Shown: one piece after another, positions 10,209 through 50,901 of the stretch
Numbering within the stretch: position 1 is the stretch's first letter
How the letters are laid out: every line of letters starts with the position of its first letter
Origin: Massilia polaris
Lineage (GTDB): Bacteria > Pseudomonadota > Gammaproteobacteria > Burkholderiales > Burkholderiaceae_D
DNA length: 64,000 nt
Assembly (NCBI RefSeq): GCF_012927275.1
Contig: NZ_JABBGG010000010.1
Location: 1 to 64,000 of the forward strand
Direction of reading: 5' to 3'
Notes under the pieces: model-generated
Told to the model about the DNA's origin: nothing
Seen by the model: the letters and a program-made list of their open reading frames with translations, nothing else
The model's database searches: none
Program-made: the position numbers and the translations under genes

Positions 10209-11474
10209 ATGAAACAACGCGCGGTAGTGATCCTTCAGATTGCATGCATCCTTCTCACGCTCCATGTGCCGTCCAATGCGCAAGTGTTGTGGGTTGGTGG
10301 ATCGTACATGGAGCAGCTGCGAAGGGCTGAAGCAGCCCTTCCTTCGCTTGCCGCCGATGCGAACATCCAGCCTCCTGGCAGCGAAACCGGGACGGCCTTG
10401 AGAAAAGCGTCGTCTGCCTTTCAGAAGCTCGGTAACTGGCGCGCTTTCGTGGGCGATCACGACGGCGCGATCGCCGCATACGATTTCCAACGCACACGTC
10501 CGCCCCATCTCAAAGGCAAGGCCGCGGACCTGCAGGCGATTGACGAGGCCGTCGCTGACGACGCGATCCAGGCGATTGTTGCCGAGGCGCGCACCAAGCG
10601 GGTCGTTCTGTTGAATGAGGCGCACAACATATCCATGCATCGCGCGTTCGCGCAAAAATTGGCCGCCGAGCTCCGCAAGATCGGTTACGGCTACCTGGCT
10701 GCGGAAACGTTCAGGAACGACGACGGGCCCGTGCCACCTTCAACCTACGTCGGTCTTACCTCAGGCTTCTTCACATTGGATCCAGTATTCGCAGGCTTCG
10801 TCAACAGCGCAATAGCGGATGGCTGGAAGCTGGTGTCGTACGAGCACGGCACCCAGGACGTCACCGGGAGCTTCGCGGAACGGATCGCCGCGCGCGAAAC
10901 GGGGCAGGCAAGGAACTTGGTCGATCGCATCTTCTCCAAAGACAAGGAGGCCAGGGTGCTGATCTTCGTCGGCTACGGCCACTTGTACAAATCGCCGAAT
11001 GGTGCGGCGCCCGTGATGATGGGCGAACATCTGCGGAGGATGACCGGGCTGGACATGCTGCACGTGGACCAGACGCATTTCTTCGCGCATCCAAAACGGG
11101 AGGACGAGAGCCCGCTATATGAGGCACTGCTTGCCAAGGCGTCCGGGAAAAACGCGCCATTCACCCTGCGCGCGAAGGACGGTACCTATCCGATCCTTGA
11201 AGGGATGGGCGGCCGGGTCGACATGCAGGTAGTATTCCCCCGCTACGCCATACAGTTCGGCCGGCCGGAATGGCTGGGTACGCTCGCCGGCCGCGCGCCG
11301 CGCGATATCCCGCCTGGATTGCTGCCAAAAACAGGACGACGGCTGGTGATGGCGTACCGGAAGTCGGATGGCCCTGACGCTGTGCCTGCTGATAACGTAC
11401 TCGTCGAGGCGGGCAAACCAGTGCCAAAGCTGATGTTGCCTAAGGGGGAGTTCCGTATCGCGGTAGAGGATTAG
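10209..11474 (+). CDS. Secreted ChaN/TraB-like protein of unknown function
   Basis: A 421-residue protein with an N-terminal signal peptide (cleavage likely after SNA, residue 24). The central part has VVLLNEAHNISMHRAFAQKL (about 135-155), then LAAETF and a VLIFVGYGHL block (about 248), an order of motifs (E-H near a strand, then G-x-G-H) reminiscent of the ChaN haem-binding and TraB/EreA superfamily. An N-terminal region with a TPR-like flavour precedes it. The gene starts 9 bases after nudB but is not part of the usual nudB neighbourhood, so it may be an insertion into the block. Family assignment is tentative; the activity is unknown. Confidence 0.5.
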   Translation: MKQRAVVILQIACILLTLHVPSNAQVLWVGGSYMEQLRRAEAALPSLAADANIQPPGSETGTALRKASSAFQKLGNWRAFVGDHDGAIAAYDFQRTRPPHLKGKAADLQAIDEAVADDAIQAIVAEARTKRVVLLNEAHNISMHRAFAQKLAAELRKIGYGYLAAETFRNDDGPVPPSTYVGLTSGFFTLDPVFAGFVNSAIADGWKLVSYEHGTQDVTGSFAERIAARETGQARNLVDRIFSKDKEARVLIFVGYGHLYKSPNGAAPVMMGEHLRRMTGLDMLHVDQTHFFAHPKREDESPLYEALLAKASGKNAPFTLRAKDGTYPILEGMGGRVDMQVVFPRYAIQFGRPEWLGTLAGRAPRDIPPGLLPKTGRRLVMAYRKSDGPDAVPADNVLVEAGKPVPKLMLPKGEFRIAVED

Positions 11475-39911: not shown

Positions 39912-40611
39912 ATCGCCTGGCTCGAACGAGCTGCCCCTGTTCCTCGCGTCCACCGCGCACGACATGAAAAACTCCGTCAGCGTGCTGGCCGGCACGCTGG
40001 AGAAGCTGCTCGTCGGCGCGTCGCCGGAGACCGAGGCGGCGTACCCGCAGATGGCGCACATGCTGTACCAGACCAAACGCCTGAACGACAACCTGATCCA
40101 GCTGCTGGCGCTGTACAAGCAGGTTGGCAAGCCCGACTATCCGTTCGACCTCCAGCCGCTGCAGGTCGGCGACTTCGTCGAGCAAGTCATCGCCAGCGTG
40201 CGCGTCCTGCTCGATTCGCGCGGCATCACGCTGGAGACGGAATGCGACCCGAACCTTGTCTGGCACTTCGACGAGGACCTCGTCATCGGCGTAGTGGGGC
40301 ACGCCATCAACAATGCGGTCAACTACACGCATGACAAGATTCGCTTCGCGATCGGCGTCGTCGACGAGTGTCTCGAGATCCGCGTCGAGGACAATGGCCG
40401 CGGCTATCCGCAGGCGATGCTGGATGCGGGCGTGTCGGCCATGAGCGGGATTCACTCGGGCGTCAACTTCCTCACCAACAGCACCGGCCTCGGGCTCTAT
40501 TTTTCCAGCGAAGTGGCGAAGATGCACAAGCACCGCCAGCGCAGCGGCGCAATCAGGCTGGAAAACGGCGGCGCCTACGGCGGCGGGTGCTTTGTACTGA
40601 GGCTGCCATGA
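39904..40611 (+). CDS. Small sensor histidine kinase without input domain
   Basis: A 235-residue histidine kinase core. An H-box-like helix (STAHDMKNSVSVLAG, histidine about 19) is followed by a dimerisation helix and a HATPase domain: N box HAINNAVNYTHD (about 137-148), EDNGRGYP and STGLGLYFSSEVAKMH (about 196-211). There is no membrane segment and no PAS, GAF or HAMP domain, so its signal must come from a partner. It overlaps the mnmC end by 8 bases and its stop overlaps the ATG of the next gene (ATGA), a receiver-TPR protein that is almost surely its partner. Confidence 0.82.
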   Translation: MNESPGSNELPLFLASTAHDMKNSVSVLAGTLEKLLVGASPETEAAYPQMAHMLYQTKRLNDNLIQLLALYKQVGKPDYPFDLQPLQVGDFVEQVIASVRVLLDSRGITLETECDPNLVWHFDEDLVIGVVGHAINNAVNYTHDKIRFAIGVVDECLEIRVEDNGRGYPQAMLDAGVSAMSGIHSGVNFLTNSTGLGLYFSSEVAKMHKHRQRSGAIRLENGGAYGGGCFVLRLP

Positions 40612-42275
40612 GCGTCGCCAGCGTGGACGAACGGTCAGTGGACTGGGCCAGCAAGAACTACCTGGTAGTCGACGACTTTGTCGGCATCCGCCAGCTGCTG
40701 CGCGAAAGCCTGCGCAACCTGGGCGCGAAGAACATCGACCAGGCTTCATCGGGCGGCGAGGCGATGGGCATGCTGGCCAAGGTCCGCTACGACGTCGTGC
40801 TGTGCGACTTCAACCTCGGCGAGGGCAAGAACGGCCAGCAGGTCCTGGAGGAAGCGCGCATACGCAACCTGCTCCTGCCCAGCAGCGTGTGGCTGATGGT
40901 GTCGGCCGAGAAGAGCGTCGAATCGGTGATGGGCGCGGCCGAGCACCAGCCCGACGCCTACCTGATCAAGCCGATCACCGAAGGCATGCTGCTCACGCGG
41001 CTGAACCGAGTGTGGCACAAGAAGCAGGTGTTCCGCGCGATCGACCAGGCCTACGCCGAAAAGGACTACCTGCGCGCGGCGAAGCTGTGCGACGAGCAGA
41101 TCGAAGCAAACAAGGTGCACGAAACAGAACTGCTGCGCATGAAAGCGGCGCTGATGCTCAAGAGCGGCGAACCGGAGAAAGCGCGCGAGGCCTACGAGCG
41201 CGTACTGAAGGAGCGCGAGTACCAGTGGGCGAGGGCGGGACTGGCGAAGATCCGCATGGCCAATGGCGAGCACGAACAGGCGCGCCAGATTTTCCAGGGC
41301 GTGATCGCCGAGAACCGCAACTACATCGATGCGTATGACCAGATGGCGCTGGCGCATCAGCACATGGGCCAGCCCGAGGCGGCCTGCGACGTGCTGGAGC
41401 GCGCCGCCAGGCTGTCGCCAAATTCGGTGCAGCGGCAGCGCAGGCTGGGCGAGGTGTCGCTCAAGCTGGGAAATATCGGCGTGGCAGAGAAGGCCTTCCG
41501 CAAGTGCATCTCGATCGGCGAATACTCGGTCACGAAAACGGTCGATGCCTACTTCGGCCTGGCGCGCGTGTGCGGCCAGAAGAACGAAACCAAGGAAGCG
41601 CTGCTACTGCTGGCGGCCGCGCGGCGCGATTTTCCGGACGAGGACATCGAGCTGCGCGCCAAGATCACCGAGGGCCTGGTGTACCACGAGAGCGGCGACT
41701 TCCGCCGCGCGCGCAAGGCCGGCGACGAGCTGGAGGAGATGCTCAATGCCGACCCGGCGCGCCCGGACACGGCGACCTGCATCGAGCTGGCGACGCTGCT
41801 GTTTGCCGTGGGCGTCAAGGATGCGCCGGCCGAACTGCTGTGCTACGTCATCCGGAACAACCACGACAACATCTTGCTGCTCGACGAAGTGCAGCGCATT
41901 TTCGACAAGGCCCGCCTTGGCGATGAGGGCGAGCTGCTGATCCGGAAGTCGCGCAAGGAAGCGACCGACATGATGAACCAGGGCGTGCTGCTCTGGAAGA
42001 CCGGCAAGCTGCCGGAAGCGGTGGCGTGGATGCGCGACGCGCGCGCGGCGCTGCCGAACAACCTTCGCATCCTGTTCAACGCGGCCCAGATCCTGATCTC
42101 GCACATGCAGGCGCATGGTTACGATGCAGACCTGTCGGCCGAGGCGACCGGGGTGCTGCTGCACGTCGATAAGATACAGCCGGGGCAGCAGCGCTTCGCG
42201 CAGCTGATGGAACAACTGGCGGCGCTGACGCCAGCGCCACCGGACCACGCCGCGGACGAAGCCGCGCAGGACTGA
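40608..42275 (+). CDS. Response regulator with TPR repeats
   Basis: A 555-residue protein with an N-terminal receiver domain (about 18-135; acidic pair VDD at 21-23, phospho-acceptor D67 in VLCDFNL, conserved lysine in YLIKPIT) and a long helical C-terminal part (about 150-550) made of TPR-like repeats. There is no DNA-binding or enzyme domain, so output should be by protein-protein contact. Translation is coupled to the small histidine kinase by ATGA overlap. This receiver-TPR form is common in environmental betaproteobacteria and Pseudomonas; what it controls is not evident. Confidence 0.85.
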   Translation: MSVASVDERSVDWASKNYLVVDDFVGIRQLLRESLRNLGAKNIDQASSGGEAMGMLAKVRYDVVLCDFNLGEGKNGQQVLEEARIRNLLLPSSVWLMVSAEKSVESVMGAAEHQPDAYLIKPITEGMLLTRLNRVWHKKQVFRAIDQAYAEKDYLRAAKLCDEQIEANKVHETELLRMKAALMLKSGEPEKAREAYERVLKEREYQWARAGLAKIRMANGEHEQARQIFQGVIAENRNYIDAYDQMALAHQHMGQPEAACDVLERAARLSPNSVQRQRRLGEVSLKLGNIGVAEKAFRKCISIGEYSVTKTVDAYFGLARVCGQKNETKEALLLLAAARRDFPDEDIELRAKITEGLVYHESGDFRRARKAGDELEEMLNADPARPDTATCIELATLLFAVGVKDAPAELLCYVIRNNHDNILLLDEVQRIFDKARLGDEGELLIRKSRKEATDMMNQGVLLWKTGKLPEAVAWMRDARAALPNNLRILFNAAQILISHMQAHGYDADLSAEATGVLLHVDKIQPGQQRFAQLMEQLAALTPAPPDHAADEAAQD

Positions 42276-43216: not shown

Positions 43217-43346
43217 CTTGTCTCTCCAAAGAATCGAACCCTAAGCGTAGCAGATTATGCAAGCGGCGCTCAAACGAATCTTATGAAAAAACCAAGCGGC
43301 ATCGCTGGCTCGGAGTAGTGTTCAGCGGAAATTCGCTGTGCCGCGT

Positions 43347-43352
43347 TACACT
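43347..43352 (+). promoter_or_regulatory. -10-like box (TACACT) close to the DUF3108 start
   Basis: TACACT ends seven bases before the ATG at 43359, so transcription from it would begin at the start codon. No ribosome site and no clear -35 box are seen. Weak on its own. Confidence 0.25.
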
Positions 43353-43358
43353 AGCGAC

Positions 43359-44495
43359 ATGACCTTTGCCTTGCCATCATTCCGTTTGCGCCTGCCTTTG
43401 CTGATCGGCGCGACGCTGCTGCTGCACTATGTGGCGATCGGCTGGGTCGGAAACGGCATGGGATTGCAGCAGCGAAGCGAGCCAGCCGCGCCCGCGCCTA
43501 TCGTGGCGCAGTTGCGCGCACCGCCTCCGCCGGTCCGGCAGCCAGCGGCTGCGGATGTGGCGCCAAAGCCGCCGCCGAAGCGAAGAATCCCGGCGCCGAT
43601 CAAGAAAGCGGCCCCAGTGGAAGCTGTGGCGCAGGAGGAGCCAGCTCCAGCCGCGCCAACTCCGGCCGCGCCTACTCCGGCCGCGCCTACTCCGGCCGAG
43701 CCTACTCCGGCCGAGCCGGAAGTCGTGCCCGAAACGCCGGTCGTGGCCGAGGAAGTCCCGGCAGAAGAACCGCCAGCCGAAGCGCCTGCCGCGCCGCTGC
43801 CGCGCCAGTACAAGGCCAATGTGCCGCCGTCGTCCCACCTGGCGCTGGAACTGGAACGTATTGACGCCAAAGGCACGCTCTGGCACGGCGTGGCCGAGAT
43901 GTCGTGGAAGGTCGATGGCGGCAGCTACGCGATGACGTTCGATGCCGGGATCAGCATGCTGGTCACCAGGGTCAACCTGCTGTCGCTGGCCAGCGAAGGC
44001 AGTGTCGGCGAGGGCGGTTTCGTGCCGCGCGTGGCCACCGAAAAGCGCCGGGGCCGGGCGCAGACCGCGACCCACTTCAACAACGAGCAAGGCAGCATCA
44101 CGTTTTCGGCCTCGCAGAATGCGGCCCCTCTGGTGGCGGGTGCGCAGGACAAGGCCACGCTGCCGCTGCAGCTTGCCGCGATCGCGAGGGCCGATCCGGC
44201 GCAATTCGAGGGCGGCCTCGAAATTACTGTCGGCGAAGAGCGCGCCGCAAGCGTTTATACATTTGTAGTGGTGGGCCAGGAAGAGATCGAGACGAAGCTG
44301 GGCAAGCTGCAAACCTGGCGGCTGTCGCGCCCTCCCAAGCCTGGCTCTTACAATTCACGCCTTGACGTGTGGCTGGCGCCTGGCCGGGGATGGTATCCGG
44401 TCCGCATCCGCAACACAGAGGCCAGCGGCGCAGTGACCACGCAGACGGTTGCGCATATCGTAGTCACAGATTCGGGAACAGCAAATGCACAGTAA
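43359..44495 (+). CDS. DUF3108 protein with proline-rich, TonB-like N-terminal half
   Basis: A 378-residue protein anchored by one N-terminal membrane segment (about 10-30), followed by a long Pro/Ala/Glu-rich region (about 40-150) with a tandem repeat, similar to the periplasm-spanning part of TonB, and a C-terminal DUF3108 domain (about 160-370). The DUF3108 marks are LELERIDAKGTLWHGVAEMSW, an FSASQNAAPLVAGAQDKATLPLQLA segment and the closing SRLDVWLAPGRGWYPVRIR. DUF3108 is probably a periplasmic beta-rich domain of unknown role. Its 3' end overlaps the next gene, another DUF3108 protein, by 11 bases, so they are a tandem duplicate pair and one operon. The ATG at 43359 was preferred to a GTG at 43338. 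Confidence 0.82.
   Translation: MTFALPSFRLRLPLLIGATLLLHYVAIGWVGNGMGLQQRSEPAAPAPIVAQLRAPPPPVRQPAAADVAPKPPPKRRIPAPIKKAAPVEAVAQEEPAPAAPTPAAPTPAAPTPAEPTPAEPEVVPETPVVAEEVPAEEPPAEAPAAPLPRQYKANVPPSSHLALELERIDAKGTLWHGVAEMSWKVDGGSYAMTFDAGISMLVTRVNLLSLASEGSVGEGGFVPRVATEKRRGRAQTATHFNNEQGSITFSASQNAAPLVAGAQDKATLPLQLAAIARADPAQFEGGLEITVGEERAASVYTFVVVGQEEIETKLGKLQTWRLSRPPKPGSYNSRLDVWLAPGRGWYPVRIRNTEASGAVTTQTVAHIVVTDSGTANAQ
43656..43715 (+). repeat. 15-bp coding tandem repeat (PTPA-A/E x4)
   Basis: Four direct copies of a 15-base unit, CCTACTCCGGCCGCG with small changes, encode PTPAA PTPAA PTPAE PTPAE in the proline-rich part of the DUF3108 protein. The near-identity of the copies indicates recent expansion and likely length variation between strains. 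Confidence 0.85.
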
Positions 44496-45225
44496 GGTCA
44501 TCAGAACGGCCCTGGCGGGAACGGCGCTTGCGCTGTCGGTGGCCGCGAGCCACGCGGCGCCGGCGCGCGCCTTCGACCTGCCGCCATCGGCGGACCTGAG
44601 GTACGCGATCAAGGCCGTACAAAAAGGGCTGGCGCTGGACGGCGAAGCGACCGTCAAGTGGCGCGCTGGCGATGGTAAATACACGCTGTCGAGCGAGTCG
44701 CGCGCGTCCATCCTCGGCAAGATCAACGAGAACCGCAGCGAAGGCCTGGTCGACGAGAACGGTCTCGCGCCCGAAACGTTCACCGAGAAGCGCTTCCGCA
44801 AGGACCCGTACAGCGTCACCTTCGACCGCGATTCGCGCACCATCCGCTTCACCGAAGGGGAGCAGAGCTACCCGATCAAGGGCGGGGAGCAGGACCGTGC
44901 CTCGGTGCCGTGGCAGCTGTCGGCCATGGCGCGCGGGATGCCGGGTAAATTCGTCCCGGGTTCCGAATGGCGCACCGTCGTCGCCGGCCGCCGCGATGCC
45001 GAGGCGTGGGTATTCAAGGTCGCCAGGACGGAAAAGCTGCGCACCCCGATGGGCCAGCTGGACGCCGTCCACCTGGTCAAGGAGCCGTCGTCCGGCACAA
45101 AAGAGCAGCAAATCGATATCTGGCTGGCGCCGGCGCACGAGTGGTATCCGGTGAAAGTGCGCTTCAGCGACCATGACGGCGGCGACGTCGTCGAACAAAC
45201 CATTGCCAAAATCACAAGGCGGTAA
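44485..45225 (+). CDS. DUF3108 family exported protein
   Basis: A 246-residue protein with a signal peptide (about 1-25) and a full DUF3108 domain: YAIKAVQKGLALDGEATVKWR, KFVPGSEW, TPMGQLDAVHLVKE and IDIWLAPAHEWYPVKVRF. It resembles the C-terminal half of the preceding protein and overlaps that gene by 11 bases; the two probably arose by duplication and act together in the periplasm. The function of the domain is unknown. A 92-base hairpin begins three bases after its stop codon. Confidence 0.85.
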   Translation: MHSKVIRTALAGTALALSVAASHAAPARAFDLPPSADLRYAIKAVQKGLALDGEATVKWRAGDGKYTLSSESRASILGKINENRSEGLVDENGLAPETFTEKRFRKDPYSVTFDRDSRTIRFTEGEQSYPIKGGEQDRASVPWQLSAMARGMPGKFVPGSEWRTVVAGRRDAEAWVFKVARTEKLRTPMGQLDAVHLVKEPSSGTKEQQIDIWLAPAHEWYPVKVRFSDHDGGDVVEQTIAKITRR

Positions 45226-45399: not shown

Positions 45400-46782
45400 A
45401 TGCCCGAAACAATGATGGAATTAACGGCAGGTGTGGCCTCGGCCGCGGAAATACTGACAATCGGGCAAGACGACGCGGATTCGCTGCAGGCGCATTTCCA
45501 CGCCGGCATCGCCGCCGATGAAATCGAGCAGGTTTTCCACCTCAAGCGCGCCCAGCCGACCTTGACGGCGTTCACCGCGCTGTTCCACGGCGGCTTCGAC
45601 GGCGTGCTGATCCGCCTGCTGGTGCTGCGCGAACTGGCGTCGGACACGGCCAGCGCCGGATTTTCGCGCTCCGATATCAATCAGAAGCTCGCTTACCTGA
45701 TTCCCGAGAGCCTCGAGACCGTGCTTGGGCGCCTGCGCTCGCACGGCCTGCTGGCGTGGGACGCGTCGGCCGCCGTCTACCGCATCACGCCGATGGCGCG
45801 CAACGTGCTGTCCTCGCTCGACACCATGCTGTCGATGGGCCAGGCCGACGACGAAGCCGAAATGGGCTTCCTGCTGTCGCAGGTCGCGGGCGCGCAGGCG
45901 GTCGGCGGCGTCACCGTCGAACAATTGAAGCACCTGCTGGGCCGCCTGGTCGACCTGACCGAGGAGTTCCGCGATGCGATCGCCTCCGGTTCCGAATTCC
46001 GCCTGCGTACCTCGCAGGCCAAGTGGCACATGGCCTGCGACTGGGTCGAGAAGGGCTCCGAGATCCTGCGCGCGATCACCTCCGACGAGCGCGCCGACTC
46101 GGCCACCCACAAGGCGGCGCAGGCGATCGGCCGCGCCCAGAGCGCGCTGCTGAACATGCAGGGCATGTTCTCGCGCGCGCTCAACCAGATCGAACGCCAG
46201 CGCGTCCACCTCGGCCAGTCCGGACTGTCGACCACCGACGTCAAGCGCTGGCTGCTGGCCCACGACGACCTGTCCTCGCTGGCCCAGGGCGCAATCGACC
46301 GCCCGGTGGTGCCGCTGTTCGGCACCCCGGCCGAGATGATCGACGTGGCCGAAACCGAACTGCTCACCGAGCGCAGCGCGGTGGCCGGCCCGGCCGGCCT
46401 TCCGGAGGGCCAGGATGCGCCGCTGACCGTCAACGATGCGCCTGCCATCCAGGTCGAGCTCGACGACTGGCTGGCGCGCCTGTCCGATTTCGCCAACCTG
46501 GGTAACTTCCCGAGCTTCTCCGAAGAGGGCCCGAAATCGGTGCCGATCCAGGATTCGCTGCTGCCGGCCAGTTTCGCGGTGGCGTCCTACCGCGCGTCGA
46601 TGCTGCCGCTGCTGGGCGACGCCGCCGAGGCCAGCCTGCAGGGTGCCACCGCGCAGCTGGCGCGCCTGCCCGTGACCTTCACCCCGACCGACGAAATGGT
46701 GCAGCTGGACGATCCGCACGTCGCTGCCATCTCGATTGCGACCCTCTCACTAGACCTCGAAAGCGGCCCGCCAGATGAATGA
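45400..46782 (+). CDS. mksF: MksF-like kleisin subunit of a condensin
   Basis: A 460-residue protein that heads a three-gene SMC operon. Its N-terminus (about 30-125) looks like a winged-helix dimer region (FSRSDINQKLAYLIPESLETVLGRLRSHGLLAWD), followed by a long helical middle (about 150-300) and an acidic linker with DDWLARLSDF, then a C-terminal helical part. Position, length and layout fit MksF/MukF, the kleisin that bridges SMC heads and recruits MksE. The gene order F-E-B matches Pseudomonas aeruginosa mksFEB. Sequence identity to MksF was not computed, so the name rests on context and architecture. It overlaps mksE by 8 bases. Confidence 0.7.
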   Translation: MPETMMELTAGVASAAEILTIGQDDADSLQAHFHAGIAADEIEQVFHLKRAQPTLTAFTALFHGGFDGVLIRLLVLRELASDTASAGFSRSDINQKLAYLIPESLETVLGRLRSHGLLAWDASAAVYRITPMARNVLSSLDTMLSMGQADDEAEMGFLLSQVAGAQAVGGVTVEQLKHLLGRLVDLTEEFRDAIASGSEFRLRTSQAKWHMACDWVEKGSEILRAITSDERADSATHKAAQAIGRAQSALLNMQGMFSRALNQIERQRVHLGQSGLSTTDVKRWLLAHDDLSSLAQGAIDRPVVPLFGTPAEMIDVAETELLTERSAVAGPAGLPEGQDAPLTVNDAPAIQVELDDWLARLSDFANLGNFPSFSEEGPKSVPIQDSLLPASFAVASYRASMLPLLGDAAEASLQGATAQLARLPVTFTPTDEMVQLDDPHVAAISIATLSLDLESGPPDE

Positions 46783-47515
46783 CGATTCCCAAATCCTGAT
46801 TGCGCGCCTGCTGACGCACCAGACCCTGCGCCGCGACGACAAGATGGTCAAGCGCGTGCTGTCGGACGAGCAGTTCCGCGCCGAAGTCGACAAACGCCTG
46901 CTCGAATCGGGCCTGAAGCTGCTCGATAACGTCTACGCCGACCACGTCACGCTGGCGCTGCACCGCGCGGTGGAACCGAAGATCTTCGGCGCCAAGGACA
47001 TCTGGCAGAACAATAACTTCGGCCTGACGCGCGACGGCGTGGCGCTGCTGGTGGTGCTGTGGGCGCAGATCATCCTGCCCAAGCGCGAACGCCAGGAGAC
47101 CCACCAGAGCGCCGACGACGACCAGACCGACCTGTTCGGCAAGGAGAAACCGATGCCGCGTGCGGAAGATACCTCGATCGGTATTTCGTACACCGCGCTG
47201 CTGGCCGACTTCGGCGAAAAGCTCGGCAAGAAGACGCGCATGGACATGAACCTCGGCACGCTGTCCAAGCTGGGCTTCATCGAACGGCGCGGCGACGTGA
47301 TCCTCGAAGGCCCGCTGCTGGACCTGATGATGGACACCGACATGCTCAAGGAGCGCATCATCAACGGCGCGCTGGCCGACGTGTTCAAGCGCGCGCCGCT
47401 GGCGGTGGCGCCGGCGCGGCGCGCTGCCGCTGAAGAAGTGGCAGTCCAGGAAGCGCCCGTCGCCGAAGCGGACCTTGACGCCGATGCCCCCGATGCCATC
47501 GACACCCCAACCTGA
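46775..47515 (+). CDS. mksE: MksE-like (KITE) subunit of a condensin
   Basis: A 246-residue protein between the kleisin-like and SMC genes. It has two winged-helix-like parts (about 15-70 and 130-200), with FGLTRDGVALLVVLWAQIILPKRERQE and ISYTALLADFGEKLGKKTRMDMNLGTLSKLGFIERRGD split by an acidic linker; the C-terminal 40 residues are Ala/Glu/Asp-rich. That is the plan of MukE/MksE (KITE) proteins, which bind the kleisin and regulate the ATPase. The start overlaps the mksF end and the gene ends 9 bases before mksB, so the three are one operon. Confidence 0.7.
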   Translation: MNDDSQILIARLLTHQTLRRDDKMVKRVLSDEQFRAEVDKRLLESGLKLLDNVYADHVTLALHRAVEPKIFGAKDIWQNNNFGLTRDGVALLVVLWAQIILPKRERQETHQSADDDQTDLFGKEKPMPRAEDTSIGISYTALLADFGEKLGKKTRMDMNLGTLSKLGFIERRGDVILEGPLLDLMMDTDMLKERIINGALADVFKRAPLAVAPARRAAAEEVAVQEAPVAEADLDADAPDAIDTPT

Positions 47516-47524
47516 GGCTAAGCC

Positions 47525-50353
47525 ATGTTCCACATCAAATCACTAGAACTGGTCCATTGGGATTACTGGCAGCGGATCAAGAACATCCCGCTGGACGCGA
47601 AGATCATCACCATCGCCGGCCAGAACGGTTCGGGCAAGACCACCTTGCTGGATGCGCTGCGCACCCTGTTCGGCCTCGATTGCTCGATGGGCCGCACCTA
47701 CAAGCACTATGCGCGCCACTCCGGCCAGCAGACCGCATGGATCCGCGCGGTCGTCGACAACAAGGCCGTCGGGCGCCAGCTGTCGAACCGGCCGTTCCGC
47801 AGCTCCGGTTTTTTCAGCGACGATGAAGTCACGCTGTTCTGCCAGATCCAGAAAAACGGCGGCGACTGGAAGCGCCAGTACCTGATGCGGCCGGGGAACG
47901 TGCAGATCGAGGAAGTCACCGAAGCGACCGACTGGCTCGGCGTCGAGAACTACCGCAAGCGCCTCGCCAACGCCGGCCTGTCGCCGGCGATGGCAAAAGT
48001 GCTGGCGCTCGAGCAGGGCGAAACCGACAAGCTGTGCGAATACGCGCCGCGCCAGCTGCTCGACCTGGTGTTCCAGGTCTTCGGCGACAAGGAAGTGCTG
48101 GACGCCTACGACGAGGCCAAGCGCCACCAGCGCGACACCGAGACGGAACTGAAGCGCTTCGAATCCGAATTGGAAGCTTCGCGCACCAACCTGGAAGGCC
48201 TGCGCCTGCGCGTGGCGAACTACCACCAGTGGGACGACCTGCATAAGGAGCGCCGCAACTTGCTGGAAGAAGTGCTGCCAAGCCTGCAGTACCACGAGGC
48301 GCGCGAGAAGGCGTCTTCAGTCAGCCGTTCGCTGCGCGATGCGCGCCGTCCGCTGGCGCAGGCAGATTCGCAGCTGACCGAAAAGCGCAACGCGGTCGCG
48401 GCACAGGCGCGCGCACTGACCGACGCACAGCAGCAGGAAACCCTGCTGGAACAGGAAGCAGCCGCATTGGCGAGCCGCCTGACCCAGCTTAACGGCAAGC
48501 TCAAGCCGCTCGACAGCCTGCTGGAACAGAAGGAACGCCTGCAGAAGCTGGCGCTTGACGCTGGCGCCGACATCGCCGAAGTGGCGGCCCAGCTGGACGC
48601 GAAGGAAGCCGAACTGGCGCGCCAGAAGCAGGCCCGCGAAGCCATCTCGGCCCGCATCGCTTCCGAAATGTCGACCATCTCCGCATTGCAGGGCAAGACC
48701 GCGATGCCGGAACCGGAAGCGGTTCGCGGCATGCGCCGCGCACTGCGCGACGCCGGCATCCCGCATGCGATGCTGTCCGATATTGTCGAGGTGACCGACG
48801 CGAAATGGCAGGGCGCAGTCGAAGGCGTGCTCGGTGGTTATGCGTCGGTGGTGCTGCTGGAACGCGCCAGGGACGCCGCCGCGGCCTACCGCCTCGCCGA
48901 AAAGGAACGCTACCGCCACTTCATCGTGCCGGAATGCGTCGATGCGCCGCAATCGCAGGACGACAGCCTGCTGTCGGTGGTGCGCTTCTCCGCGGCCGCT
49001 CCTTCATGGCTGATCGACCAGCTGTCGCGCATCAGCCGGGTCGACTCGGTCGACCAAGGATTCCGCCTGTCGAAAGACGAAGAGTGGATCACGCCGGACG
49101 CCTACCACCGCGAACGCCGCGGCGGCCGCTCGCTGTTCGTGGAAGCGTCGCGCTACCGCTTCGGCCAGGCCGGCCGCACCCAGCGCATGGAAGCGATCCA
49201 GAAGTCGCTGCCGGCACTGGAAGCGCAGGAAGACACGCTGACGCTCGCGATCAGCAAGCTGGCGGCGGAAGTGGGCGCGCTCAAGGGCCGCATCGCCGGC
49301 GTCGACGCCGCCAAGGAACTGGCCGCGCGCCAGGCCGAGTTCGAGGAAGCGCTGCGCGGCATCGAACCGCTGAAGGCGGAACGCCTTGAAGTCGGTTCGC
49401 GCCTCGGCGAGCTGCAGTCGCTGACCAAGGCCGCGACGGTGACGCGCACCCGCGCCGACACCACCTGGCAGAACGCGCGCATGGCGCTGTCGGAAGCCGA
49501 AGCGGGGCTGCGCCTTGGCCACCGCCGCCAGATCGAACAGCGCGCCGAACACGCGCAGGCGCTGCTTGAGCTGCGCCGCACCTGGCGCCACCTGCCGAAG
49601 AGCTGGCGCCGCAGCGCGCGCCGCGCGTCGCTGGTATCCGAGCACCAGAACTCGCACCAGGTCGACCTGCGCGTCACGTCGCTGCAGCATTCGCTGGCGC
49701 GCGACGACTGGGAGCTCGATGCAACTGTGATCGACCAGTATCAGCGCCTGAACGACCAGCTGCACGGTCGCCAGTCGGAAACCGACGAACGGCGCTACCA
49801 GAACAACCGTGCGATCGAAGCGACCGGCAATGCGCGCGGCGCCTACATCGAGCGGCTGCGCTATACGATCAAGACCTACAGCAAGAACATCAGGGAACTG
49901 GGCGAGCTGGCGGGTATCGACGTGCATGCCGATCCGGTGCGGCTGGAGAACGACGATGTGCAGCTGTCGCAGGCCGGCCTGCACGTGCGCTTCAAGTTCG
50001 ACGGCAAGGACCAGATCGGGATGAACGACGGCGAAGCGTCGGGCGGCCAGCAGGTGATGAAGTCGCTGGTGCTGCTGATTGGCTTGCTGAAGTCGGAAGA
50101 GGGCTCGGGCGGCTTCGTGTTCATCGACGAACCGTTCGCCCACCTGGACATCCGCAATATCCAGCTGGTCGGCGAGTTCCTCAAGAACACCGAGGCGCAG
50201 TACCTGATGACGACGCCGCTGACGCACAACACCGACGTCTACGATCCTTCCGAACTGACGCTCATCACCAGCAAGAAGAAGAAGGATATGCCGTGGGCGC
50301 AGCCGATCTTCGTGCTGCAGCGCCGTACCCCGGACGCAAAAGCGGCTGCCTGA
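47525..50353 (+). CDS. mksB: MksB-like SMC ATPase of a condensin
   Basis: A 942-residue SMC-type ATPase. Walker A GQNGSGKTT is at 32-40, with long coiled coils (about 190-400 and 560-800), a hinge-like domain near 410-500 (VEGVLGGYASVVLLERA), then the signature ASGGQQVMKSL (about 837) and Walker B GGFVFIDEP (about 861), with a D-loop AHLD. It is far shorter than MukB (about 1,480) and near the size of Pseudomonas MksB. It should load on DNA as a dimer with MksF and MksE and help shape the chromosome. No MksG/JetD nuclease gene lies beside it, so a Wadjet plasmid-cutting role is unlikely. Confidence 0.8.
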   Translation: MFHIKSLELVHWDYWQRIKNIPLDAKIITIAGQNGSGKTTLLDALRTLFGLDCSMGRTYKHYARHSGQQTAWIRAVVDNKAVGRQLSNRPFRSSGFFSDDEVTLFCQIQKNGGDWKRQYLMRPGNVQIEEVTEATDWLGVENYRKRLANAGLSPAMAKVLALEQGETDKLCEYAPRQLLDLVFQVFGDKEVLDAYDEAKRHQRDTETELKRFESELEASRTNLEGLRLRVANYHQWDDLHKERRNLLEEVLPSLQYHEAREKASSVSRSLRDARRPLAQADSQLTEKRNAVAAQARALTDAQQQETLLEQEAAALASRLTQLNGKLKPLDSLLEQKERLQKLALDAGADIAEVAAQLDAKEAELARQKQAREAISARIASEMSTISALQGKTAMPEPEAVRGMRRALRDAGIPHAMLSDIVEVTDAKWQGAVEGVLGGYASVVLLERARDAAAAYRLAEKERYRHFIVPECVDAPQSQDDSLLSVVRFSAAAPSWLIDQLSRISRVDSVDQGFRLSKDEEWITPDAYHRERRGGRSLFVEASRYRFGQAGRTQRMEAIQKSLPALEAQEDTLTLAISKLAAEVGALKGRIAGVDAAKELAARQAEFEEALRGIEPLKAERLEVGSRLGELQSLTKAATVTRTRADTTWQNARMALSEAEAGLRLGHRRQIEQRAEHAQALLELRRTWRHLPKSWRRSARRASLVSEHQNSHQVDLRVTSLQHSLARDDWELDATVIDQYQRLNDQLHGRQSETDERRYQNNRAIEATGNARGAYIERLRYTIKTYSKNIRELGELAGIDVHADPVRLENDDVQLSQAGLHVRFKFDGKDQIGMNDGEASGGQQVMKSLVLLIGLLKSEEGSGGFVFIDEPFAHLDIRNIQLVGEFLKNTEAQYLMTTPLTHNTDVYDPSELTLITSKKKKDMPWAQPIFVLQRRTPDAKAAA

Positions 50354-50388: not shown

Positions 50389-50901
50389 TTAATCGCTGGC
50401 GGCGGCTTTTTTCATGGCGTAGCGCCAGCGCAGCATGCCGGCCGAGTAGGCGCCGAAGTAGCCGGCGAAGACGCCCAGGCAGACCAGCGTCAGCGGGCTG
50501 TCGGTAAAGCGCGGCAGCGTGTTGGCGCTGCCCTGGTTGACGAATATTTCGAGGCCGACATAGATGATCCGGCCGACGAACAGCATCGCGACCAGCATGC
50601 CGAGGCGCTCATTCGGCGTGAAGAAGTAGCCTTCAGGCGTGACTTCGTAGCGGGTCTTGCGCAGGCCCCAGATGCCGTAGGCGGTGCCCGCCGCCGTGCC
50701 GACCGCCAGCCAGCCGAGCGACGCCGGTTGCGACAGCAGTTCCGAGCCCGGCACCAGCACCATCGCGGCGAACACCGCCAGGCCGGTCCAGTGGCGCGAC
50801 ATGACCGACTGCTGGCGCGCCATCATGCGCTTCAGGCGCGCGTAGACGCGCCACATCAGCAGCGGTACCAGGATGAGCAGGACGATGGTTTGAATGTTCA
50901 T
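50389..50901 (-). CDS. Four- to five-helix inner-membrane protein, CcdC-like
   Basis: A 170-residue membrane protein with helices at about 4-18, 43-58, 65-78, 103-122 and 135-155. Between them is a conserved-looking GIWGLRKTRYEVTPEGYFFTPNERLGM loop. It resembles CcdC/DUF1453 family membrane proteins, of unknown function, but the match is from overall pattern only. It faces mksB tail to tail (35 bases between) and is not part of that operon. The end lies directly against the mks operon and could be read through. Confidence 0.55.
   Translation of the reverse strand: MNIQTIVLLILVPLLMWRVYARLKRMMARQQSVMSRHWTGLAVFAAMVLVPGSELLSQPASLGWLAVGTAAGTAYGIWGLRKTRYEVTPEGYFFTPNERLGMLVAMLFVGRIIYVGLEIFVNQGSANTLPRFTDSPLTLVCLGVFAGYFGAYSAGMLRWRYAMKKAAASD

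What the first reader, a model, noticed from the sequence alone, without database searches (positions are those of the whole stretch)
45400..50353. Three-gene condensin operon (MksF-MksE-MksB type) without a nuclease
Seen: an 8-base overlap and a 9-base gap tie a kleisin-like, a KITE-like and an SMC-like gene into one operon; the SMC protein has Walker A, a hinge, an ASGGQQ signature and Walker B. Known: MksBEF/JetABC systems come either with a fourth TOPRIM-type nuclease (MksG/JetD, Wadjet plasmid defence) or without it (chromosome organisation, as in Pseudomonas aeruginosa). Here the flanks are DUF3108 genes upstream and a membrane protein downstream, so no nuclease is present. Inference: a housekeeping condensin, perhaps next to Smc-ScpAB encoded elsewhere. 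The signature ASGGQQ differs from the usual LSGGE form and is worth comparing.
Basis: partly seen in the sequence, partly recalled or inferred. Interest (0 to 1): 0.6.

Follow-up and report, generated by a model that had tools for sequence, protein, structure and literature searches.

The report
Plasmid-defence condensin without its nuclease
A bacterium related to Massilia carries a three-part DNA-looping machine akin to a plasmid-destroying defence system but without the DNA-cutting part; relatives still have the cutter, carry a different version of it, or show only its remains.

Summary
The three-gene operon is real: kleisin-like (45400-46782), KITE-like (46775-47515), SMC (47525-50353). Pfam, NCBIfam and PADLOC name neither small subunit, and MukBEF models are not met. 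The SMC hinge matches a type I Wadjet JetC hinge far better than Smc or MukB; low-confidence models of KITE and kleisin resemble JetB and MukF.

'No nuclease' holds for this locus and, as far as searched, this genome, but not for the family: in 19 of 76 loci (one more cut by a contig end) a divergent JetD-like TOPRIM nuclease gene directly follows the SMC gene. None was found in 86 genomes of the window's clade. The tree needs 8 gains or losses (at least 6 forced). One genome keeps an N-terminal remnant; two relatives with 92% identical SMCs have nucleases only 49% identical.

Nuclease-free copies look housekeeping: present in 17 of 17 genomes of the window's genus, under purifying selection, and downstream of obgE in 27 of 55 nuclease-free loci. 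Smc, ScpA and ScpB are encoded elsewhere.

Best reading: a divergent Wadjet-type loop extruder, repeatedly separated from its nuclease and kept as a chromosomal condensin. Function is inferred, not shown.

The parts
45400..46782 (+). kleisin-like subunit (JetA/MksF position), 460 aa; predicted N-terminal winged helix, helical middle, low-confidence linker, C-terminal part
   Evidence: no meaningful family hit; AlphaFold model mean pLDDT 65; first five Foldseek rows are MukBEF or MukE-MukF entries, best E 2.4e-3, TM about 0.2
46775..47515 (+). KITE-like subunit (JetB/MksE position), 246 aa; two predicted winged-helix units
   Evidence: 5 of 20 homologues hit DUF4194, best 5e-4, the window protein itself none; model pLDDT 58; first three Foldseek rows are JetABC entries, best E 1.7e-4
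47525..50353 (+). SMC/JetC-like ATPase, 942 aa
   Evidence: Pfam SMC_N 50.5 bits; PADLOC JetC1 best 7.4e-21
47618..47641 (+). Walker A GQNGSGKT
48707..49204 (+). JetC-type hinge (about residues 395-560)
   Evidence: hhalign to a type I JetC prob 93-96, own Smc 3.8, MukB 2.5, five shuffles 0.1-0.2; Pfam SMC_hinge only 17.9 bits, cut-off 22.5
50036..50053 (+). ABC signature ASGGQQ
50111..50134 (+). Walker B GFVFIDEP
43338..45225 (+). flank: two DUF3108 genes upstream, not part of the complex
   Evidence: found near the operon in L040, L041, L059, L061 and L156 too
50389..50901 (-). flank: 170-aa ORF, membrane-like by look, at the place where some relatives have the nuclease gene
   Evidence: no JetD-like ORF; the only tblastn hit there by a nuclease query is an artefact inside the SMC gene

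Best explanation
The operon encodes a compact SMC complex: an SMC dimer, a kleisin and probably two KITE proteins. It belongs to a divergent, largely betaproteobacterial branch of the Wadjet (JetABCD/MksBEFG) lineage. Inferred mechanism: ATP binding and hydrolysis at the SMC heads drive DNA loop extrusion, as known for Wadjet and other SMC complexes. In relatives with the fourth gene, extrusion that runs out on a small circle would trigger the JetD-like TOPRIM nuclease. In the window's clade that gene is absent, so the motor can extrude but not cut, and it most likely works as a second chromosomal condensin beside Smc-ScpAB. Shown here: gene content, homologies, repeated absence and exchange of the nuclease, genus-wide retention, purifying selection. 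Inferred: assembly of the complex, loop extrusion, the chromosomal role, and loss rather than gain as the main direction.
For: JetC-type hinge with Smc, MukB and shuffle controls. JetABC entries as nearest KITE folds and DUF4194 hits in 5 of 20 homologues. JetD-like gene directly after the SMC gene in 19 of 76 loci, with EN[R/L]..FE, D.DPAG (D.HPAG once) and EQE motifs in 19 of 19 that line up with classical JetD (prob 97). Nuclease-bearing rows on both sides of the SMC tree; 8 changes, at least 6 forced by supported branches. Remnant in G178 and replacement in G761, with about 90% identical flanks on both sides. No nuclease found in 86 window-clade genomes. SMC in 17 of 17 genomes of the genus, 16 of 34 in a genus with nucleases. 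dN/dS 0.016-0.225 in nuclease-free pairs where it could be computed. obgE upstream in 27 nuclease-free loci of six families. Smc-ScpAB also encoded.
Against: No experiment. Kleisin and KITE show no significant sequence match to JetA, JetB, MukF or MukE; their models are low confidence, and VIA rows for the KITE tie JetB (Z 9.6) with MarR proteins (Z 9.1) while those for the kleisin are led by CorA. NCBIfam's best SMC hit is Smc itself, far under cut-off (81.9 of 567 bits), and the best single PDB hit is Rad50. The root is unknown, the tree is a quick one with long branches that may meet falsely, and the f27 nucleases sit on a long branch and may be a gain. The family is patchy above genus level: 46 of 300 genomes of the order, 95 of 195 of the family. 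The obgE link is not seen in the window's clade. Whole-genome nuclease searches scored only part of their candidates.
Confidence: 0.65

Rival explanations
1. It is simply the betaproteobacterial orthologue of Pseudomonas aeruginosa MksBEF, a known nuclease-free condensin, and the nuclease was added later in some relatives.
For: Same three-gene layout and absence of nuclease; the literature describes several MksBEF families with distant homology to one another (PMC7485682, passages).
Against: The kleisin profile found relatives in only 6 of 398 genomes across the phylum, four of them in the window's own order. Nuclease-bearing rows sit on both sides of the SMC tree, and a remnant shows recent loss in one genome. 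No P. aeruginosa MksBEF sequence was at hand, so orthology was not tested.
Confidence: 0.2
2. It is still a defence system: the three-gene core restricts plasmids or phages without JetD, by compaction or with another nuclease acting in trans.
For: Homology to Wadjet; in one genus the nuclease slot turns over while the core is kept; patchy above genus level.
Against: Presence in every genome of two nuclease-free genera (17 of 17 and 7 of 7), one match per genome in 16 of the 17 and a place near obgE in six families are unlike the spread of typical defence genes. No JetD-like gene found elsewhere in the genome.
Confidence: 0.12
3. It is a decaying leftover of a Wadjet operon.
For: The nuclease is missing.
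Against: Kleisin, KITE and SMC are under strong purifying selection; Walker A, signature and Walker B motifs are intact in all 57 loci without a nuclease ORF call, L050 included.
Confidence: 0.03

Closest known systems
Wadjet type I (JetABCD / MksBEFG)
   Same: Gene order kleisin-KITE-SMC(-nuclease); JetC-type hinge; KITE model nearest to JetABC entries; divergent JetD-like nuclease in part of the family
   Different: No nuclease found in the window genome; SMC of 942 aa against 1151 aa for the classical JetC of L165; kleisin and KITE not recognised by PADLOC JetA/JetB
MksBEF of Pseudomonas aeruginosa
   Same: Three-gene condensin operon without nuclease, beside Smc-ScpAB (PMC10586767 and PMC7485682, passages; partly recalled)
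   Different: Sequence relation not tested, no sequence at hand
MukBEF of Escherichia coli
   Same: Kleisin model's first Foldseek rows are MukBEF/MukEF entries; same gene order F-E-B
   Different: No MukB, MukE or MukF membership by sequence; MukB aligns only at the C-terminal ATPase part, not at the hinge
Smc-ScpAB
   Same: SMC-kleisin-KITE composition; SMC_N domain
   Different: A separate Smc, ScpA and ScpB are encoded in the same genome; hinge hardly matched (prob 3.8; Pfam SMC_hinge below cut-off)

Membership tests
Wadjet type I (JetABCD) | JetC-type SMC with its hinge | tested here: met
   hhalign prob 93-96 to the JetC of L165; own Smc 3.8, MukB 2.5, five shuffles 0.1-0.2
Wadjet type I (JetABCD) | JetB (DUF4194) KITE | tested here: inconclusive
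   Window protein no hit; 5 of 20 homologues hit DUF4194, best 5e-4; nearest Foldseek rows JetABC on a pLDDT 58 model, tied with MarR in VIA; hhalign to JetB prob 0.1
Wadjet type I (JetABCD) | JetA (DUF5716) kleisin recognised by sequence | tested here: not met
   No relevant hit in Pfam, NCBIfam or PADLOC; hhalign to JetA of L165 prob 5
Wadjet type I (JetABCD) | JetD TOPRIM nuclease | tested here: not met
   Not in window 38001-60000 nor found in the genome (partial scoring); present in 19 of 76 loci of the family
Wadjet type I (JetABCD) | restricts small circular plasmids | not testable with these tools
   needs a bench assay
MksBEF (P. aeruginosa type) | kleisin-KITE-SMC operon without nuclease, beside Smc-ScpAB | tested here: met
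MksBEF (P. aeruginosa type) | sequence orthology to P. aeruginosa MksB, MksE, MksF | not tested
   no such sequence was available; Petrushenko 2011 is not held
MukBEF | MukB/MukE/MukF sequence families | tested here: not met
   MukB Pfam 15.3 bits, cut-off 23; hhalign to MukF and MukE prob under 1
Rad50/SbcC | zinc-hook CxxC at the coil apex | tested here: not met
   no CxxC in the protein; four cysteines at 53, 106, 171, 471

The most novel reading that the evidence does not exclude
A plasmid-cutting SMC defence system has been turned into a chromosomal condensin several times independently, mainly within Betaproteobacteria. The nuclease behaves as an exchangeable cassette behind a conserved motor: kept, replaced by a distant allele, eroded, or lost. 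After loss the motor became fixed in whole genera and, in six families, near the core gene obgE.
Probability: 0.5. Interest if true: 0.75.

Novelty: new variant of a known kind. Interest (0 to 1): 0.58.

Why it matters
How defence SMC complexes and chromosome condensins give rise to each other is called not resolved in a review (PMC10586767, section 7), which says that P. [quoted passage not shown] This family offers several apparent replicates, including near-identical motors with and without the nuclease in one genus, so the conversion can be tested directly. Its two small subunits are missed by the Pfam, NCBIfam and PADLOC models used here.

Tried and rejected
Rejected: Rad50/SbcC assignment (no CxxC, JetC-type hinge), although phmmer's best PDB hit for the SMC alone is Rad50 (8.7e-7); with the profile the best are SMC1A and JetC. 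Rejected: ASGGQQ as a mark of the nuclease-free state (76 of 76). Rejected: an IFDR-like JetB motif as a nuclease marker; my pattern was found in none of 73 KITE proteins (first 120 residues), nuclease-bearing ones included. Led nowhere: relatives of the kleisin in viral contigs (none); plasmids at E <= 1e-10 held only two SMC pieces, both next to IS1071 in Variovorax records; the promoter scan found none and terminator-like sites were near the shuffle level (5 against mean 4.3). VIA rows for the kleisin are led by CorA, with MarR proteins and MukEF entries lower (MukEF Z 8-9, rmsd about 13), so they do not by themselves support MukF. That the JetABC and MukBEF chains matched are JetB and MukF is my reading of chain length and entry title. 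PADLOC JetC hits cover coiled coil and are not counted alone. In one search hits by the L144 query inside SMC genes come from its over-long ORF and were ignored. Chance-like Pfam hits of kleisin homologues were set aside. Paper searches; from titles and starts of abstracts none describes this family, but most subscription journals are not held, and PMC7022226, which mentions MksBEF and Betaproteobacteria, was seen only as a listing. Papers seen: PMC10586767 (passages and section 7), PMC10123090, PMC7485682, PMC12153180 (passages only); the rest as listings.

Dropped from counts: L073 (half an SMC) from the tree; L017 (4.5 kb contig) from the 76 loci; L058, L073 and L112 from the 73-locus neighbourhood tables because kleisin and KITE are cut off. 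L050 is labelled 'trunc' in the tree and has no nuclease ORF call, but its contig end encodes the first 200 residues; it is left out of the 55 nuclease-free loci (73 less 17 with the nuclease less L050). The output was cut in the middle, so its list of neighbour clusters was seen in part. The statement on 86 genomes assumes that searches drew the same 195 genomes, as the shown handles suggest.
Full report
WHAT IS THERE. Three ORFs follow each other on the + strand: 45400-46782 (460 aa), 46775-47515 (246 aa) and 47525-50353 (942 aa). The overlap is ATGAATGA and the gap 9 bases. The window is contig C2, bases 1-64000, of a 4.5 Mb genome in 30 contigs.

IDENTITY OF THE SUBUNITS. The large protein passes Pfam SMC_N (50.5 bits, cut-off 40) but not MukB (15.3, cut-off 23) or SMC_hinge (17.9, cut-off 22.5). 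NCBIfam's best is Smc at 81.9 bits against a cut-off of 567. The other two proteins have no meaningful Pfam, NCBIfam or PADLOC hit. PADLOC's best hits for the SMC are JetC models (7.4e-21); because coiled coils inflate such scores I tested the hinge apart. A hinge profile from 18 relatives matches the hinge of a type I JetC (L165, whose four genes score as JetA1, B1, C1, D1 in PADLOC) with probability 93-95 (96 with the whole profile), against 3.8 for the genome's own Smc, 2.5 for E. coli MukB and 0.1-0.2 for five shuffles. For the KITE, 5 of 20 homologues reach DUF4194 (best 5e-4), and its model (pLDDT 58) has JetABC entries as its first three Foldseek rows (best E 1.7e-4, TM about 0.3), then ScpAB; in VIA-align JetABC leads at Z 9.6 but MarR proteins follow at 9.1. 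The kleisin model (pLDDT 65) has MukBEF or MukE-MukF entries as its first five Foldseek rows, best E 2.4e-3, TM about 0.2. hhalign gave no support for kleisin to JetA or MukF, or KITE to JetB or MukE. So the SMC is JetC-like by sequence; the other two rest on position, weak DUF4194 hits and low-confidence folds.

DISTRIBUTION. The SMC was found in 46 of 300 genomes of the order, 26 of 135 genera, and in 95 of 195 of the family, 18 of 44 genera; the kleisin in 6 of 398 across the phylum, four of these in the window's order and two in other orders of its class. Of the 95, 86 are at least 68% identical to the window's SMC and 9 only 44-47%. Kleisin, KITE and SMC are together in 73 of 76 loci, window included; in the other three, kleisin and KITE are cut off by a contig start (L058, L112) or an IS1071 element (L073).

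THE FOURTH GENE. In 19 of 76 loci a gene of about 400 codons directly follows the SMC gene; L050 is cut by its contig end but encodes the start of one. Six of six such proteins given to PADLOC match JetD (best hit of each 3.5e-10 to 4.2e-16). In 19 of 19, EN[R/L]..FE, D.DPAG (D.HPAG in L052) and EQE are present, and they align with the same motifs of classical JetD. In the family draw, 7 of 195 genomes have it, all among the 9 distant ones; none of the 86 window-clade genomes and not the window's genome. In the order draw, 9 of the 46 SMC-bearing genomes have it and a tenth, G178, has a remnant; G131's copy is in two pieces on two contigs; G175 and G218 have other JetD-like hits without this SMC. 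These genome searches score only the best first-look candidates (own genome 9 of 32 and 6 of 33), so absence is strong for the fetched loci and weaker genome-wide.

LOSS AND EXCHANGE. On a tree of 75 SMCs, nuclease-bearing rows lie on both sides of the midpoint root; the nuclease-free state needs 8 changes, at least 6 forced by supported branches, against a shuffled mean of 17. The window's clade (21 rows) is all nuclease-free with support 100. The tree is the quick kind (SH-aLRT only) and warns of long branches that meet. Within one genus, G721 and G789 carry one allele, G742 and G776 another: SMC 92-93% identical, nuclease 49-50%; close homology ends 4 bases before the end of the SMC stop codon, and the DNA after the nuclease gene differs as well, so the exchanged piece is larger than the nuclease. 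In G178 about 50 residues of the nuclease N-terminus remain, followed by what look like repeats; in G761 about 470 unrelated bases fill the slot; flanks beyond are about 90% identical to G721. In that genus 16 of 34 genomes have the SMC (one only in part); 7 have the nuclease, one the remnant. The nuclease tree is poorly resolved (6 of 16 inner branches open): it is compatible with the deep split of the SMC tree, but parts the two alleles of this genus that the SMC tree joins, and puts the f27 nucleases on a long branch, perhaps a replacement or gain.

WHY CONDENSIN. In the window's genus 17 of 17 genomes have the SMC, 16 with one match and one broken copy in a 48% complete genome, and 7 of 7 in a nuclease-free genus of another family. 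dN/dS of kleisin, KITE and SMC was 0.016-0.225 in nuclease-free pairs where it could be computed (one pair saturated wholly, one partly, and several have dS above 1). In 28 of 73 loci obgE (Pfam GTP1_OBG) lies 81 to 3952 bases upstream; 27 of these are nuclease-free, in six families. The window's own clade does not show this; five relatives share its DUF3108 flank instead. Smc, ScpA and ScpB are also encoded. Together this fits a vertically kept second condensin better than a defence gene within these genera, but above genus level the family is patchy, and the function is inference.

KNOWN AND NEW. A review states that P. [quoted passage not shown] passages, section 7). Here the same step appears several times in one family. 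Whether this family is orthologous to P. aeruginosa MksBEF was not tested. I rate it a new variant of a known kind.

Noticed in passing
L053:9390-9926, and gaps in L110, L123 (between KITE and SMC) and L048, L049 (between kleisin and KITE): An acetyltransferase-like gene (GNAT by Pfam for L053; L110 and L123 by similarity, L048 and L049 by look) sits inside the operon in five nuclease-free loci.
   Followed up: partly
L111:6884-7540, L120, L122:7263-7946: A gene of about 220 codons lies between kleisin and KITE in three nuclease-free loci; two copies given to Pfam had no meaningful match.
   Followed up: partly
L115 (oriented) 10881-11234 and nine further loci: A gene of about 117 codons, MmcQ/YjbR-like by recall only, follows the SMC in 10 nuclease-free loci.
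   Followed up: no
L165 (G046 C28): A classical type I Wadjet operon with all four genes in a genome that also carries the divergent operon with nuclease.
   Followed up: partly
L073 (Variovorax sp. RA8 plasmid 2) 8016-12679: C-terminal SMC piece after an IS1071 copy, then the JetD-like gene, then genes annotated xseA and xseB (exonuclease VII).
   Followed up: no
L168 (G218): A possible further SMC-containing operon with another gene order (1233-aa ORF with a weak SMC hit first, weak JetD-like ORF last).
   Followed up: no
window 40368-42275: Response-regulator domain joined to many TPR repeats, next to a histidine-kinase-like ORF (domains; the kinase by look only).
   Followed up: no
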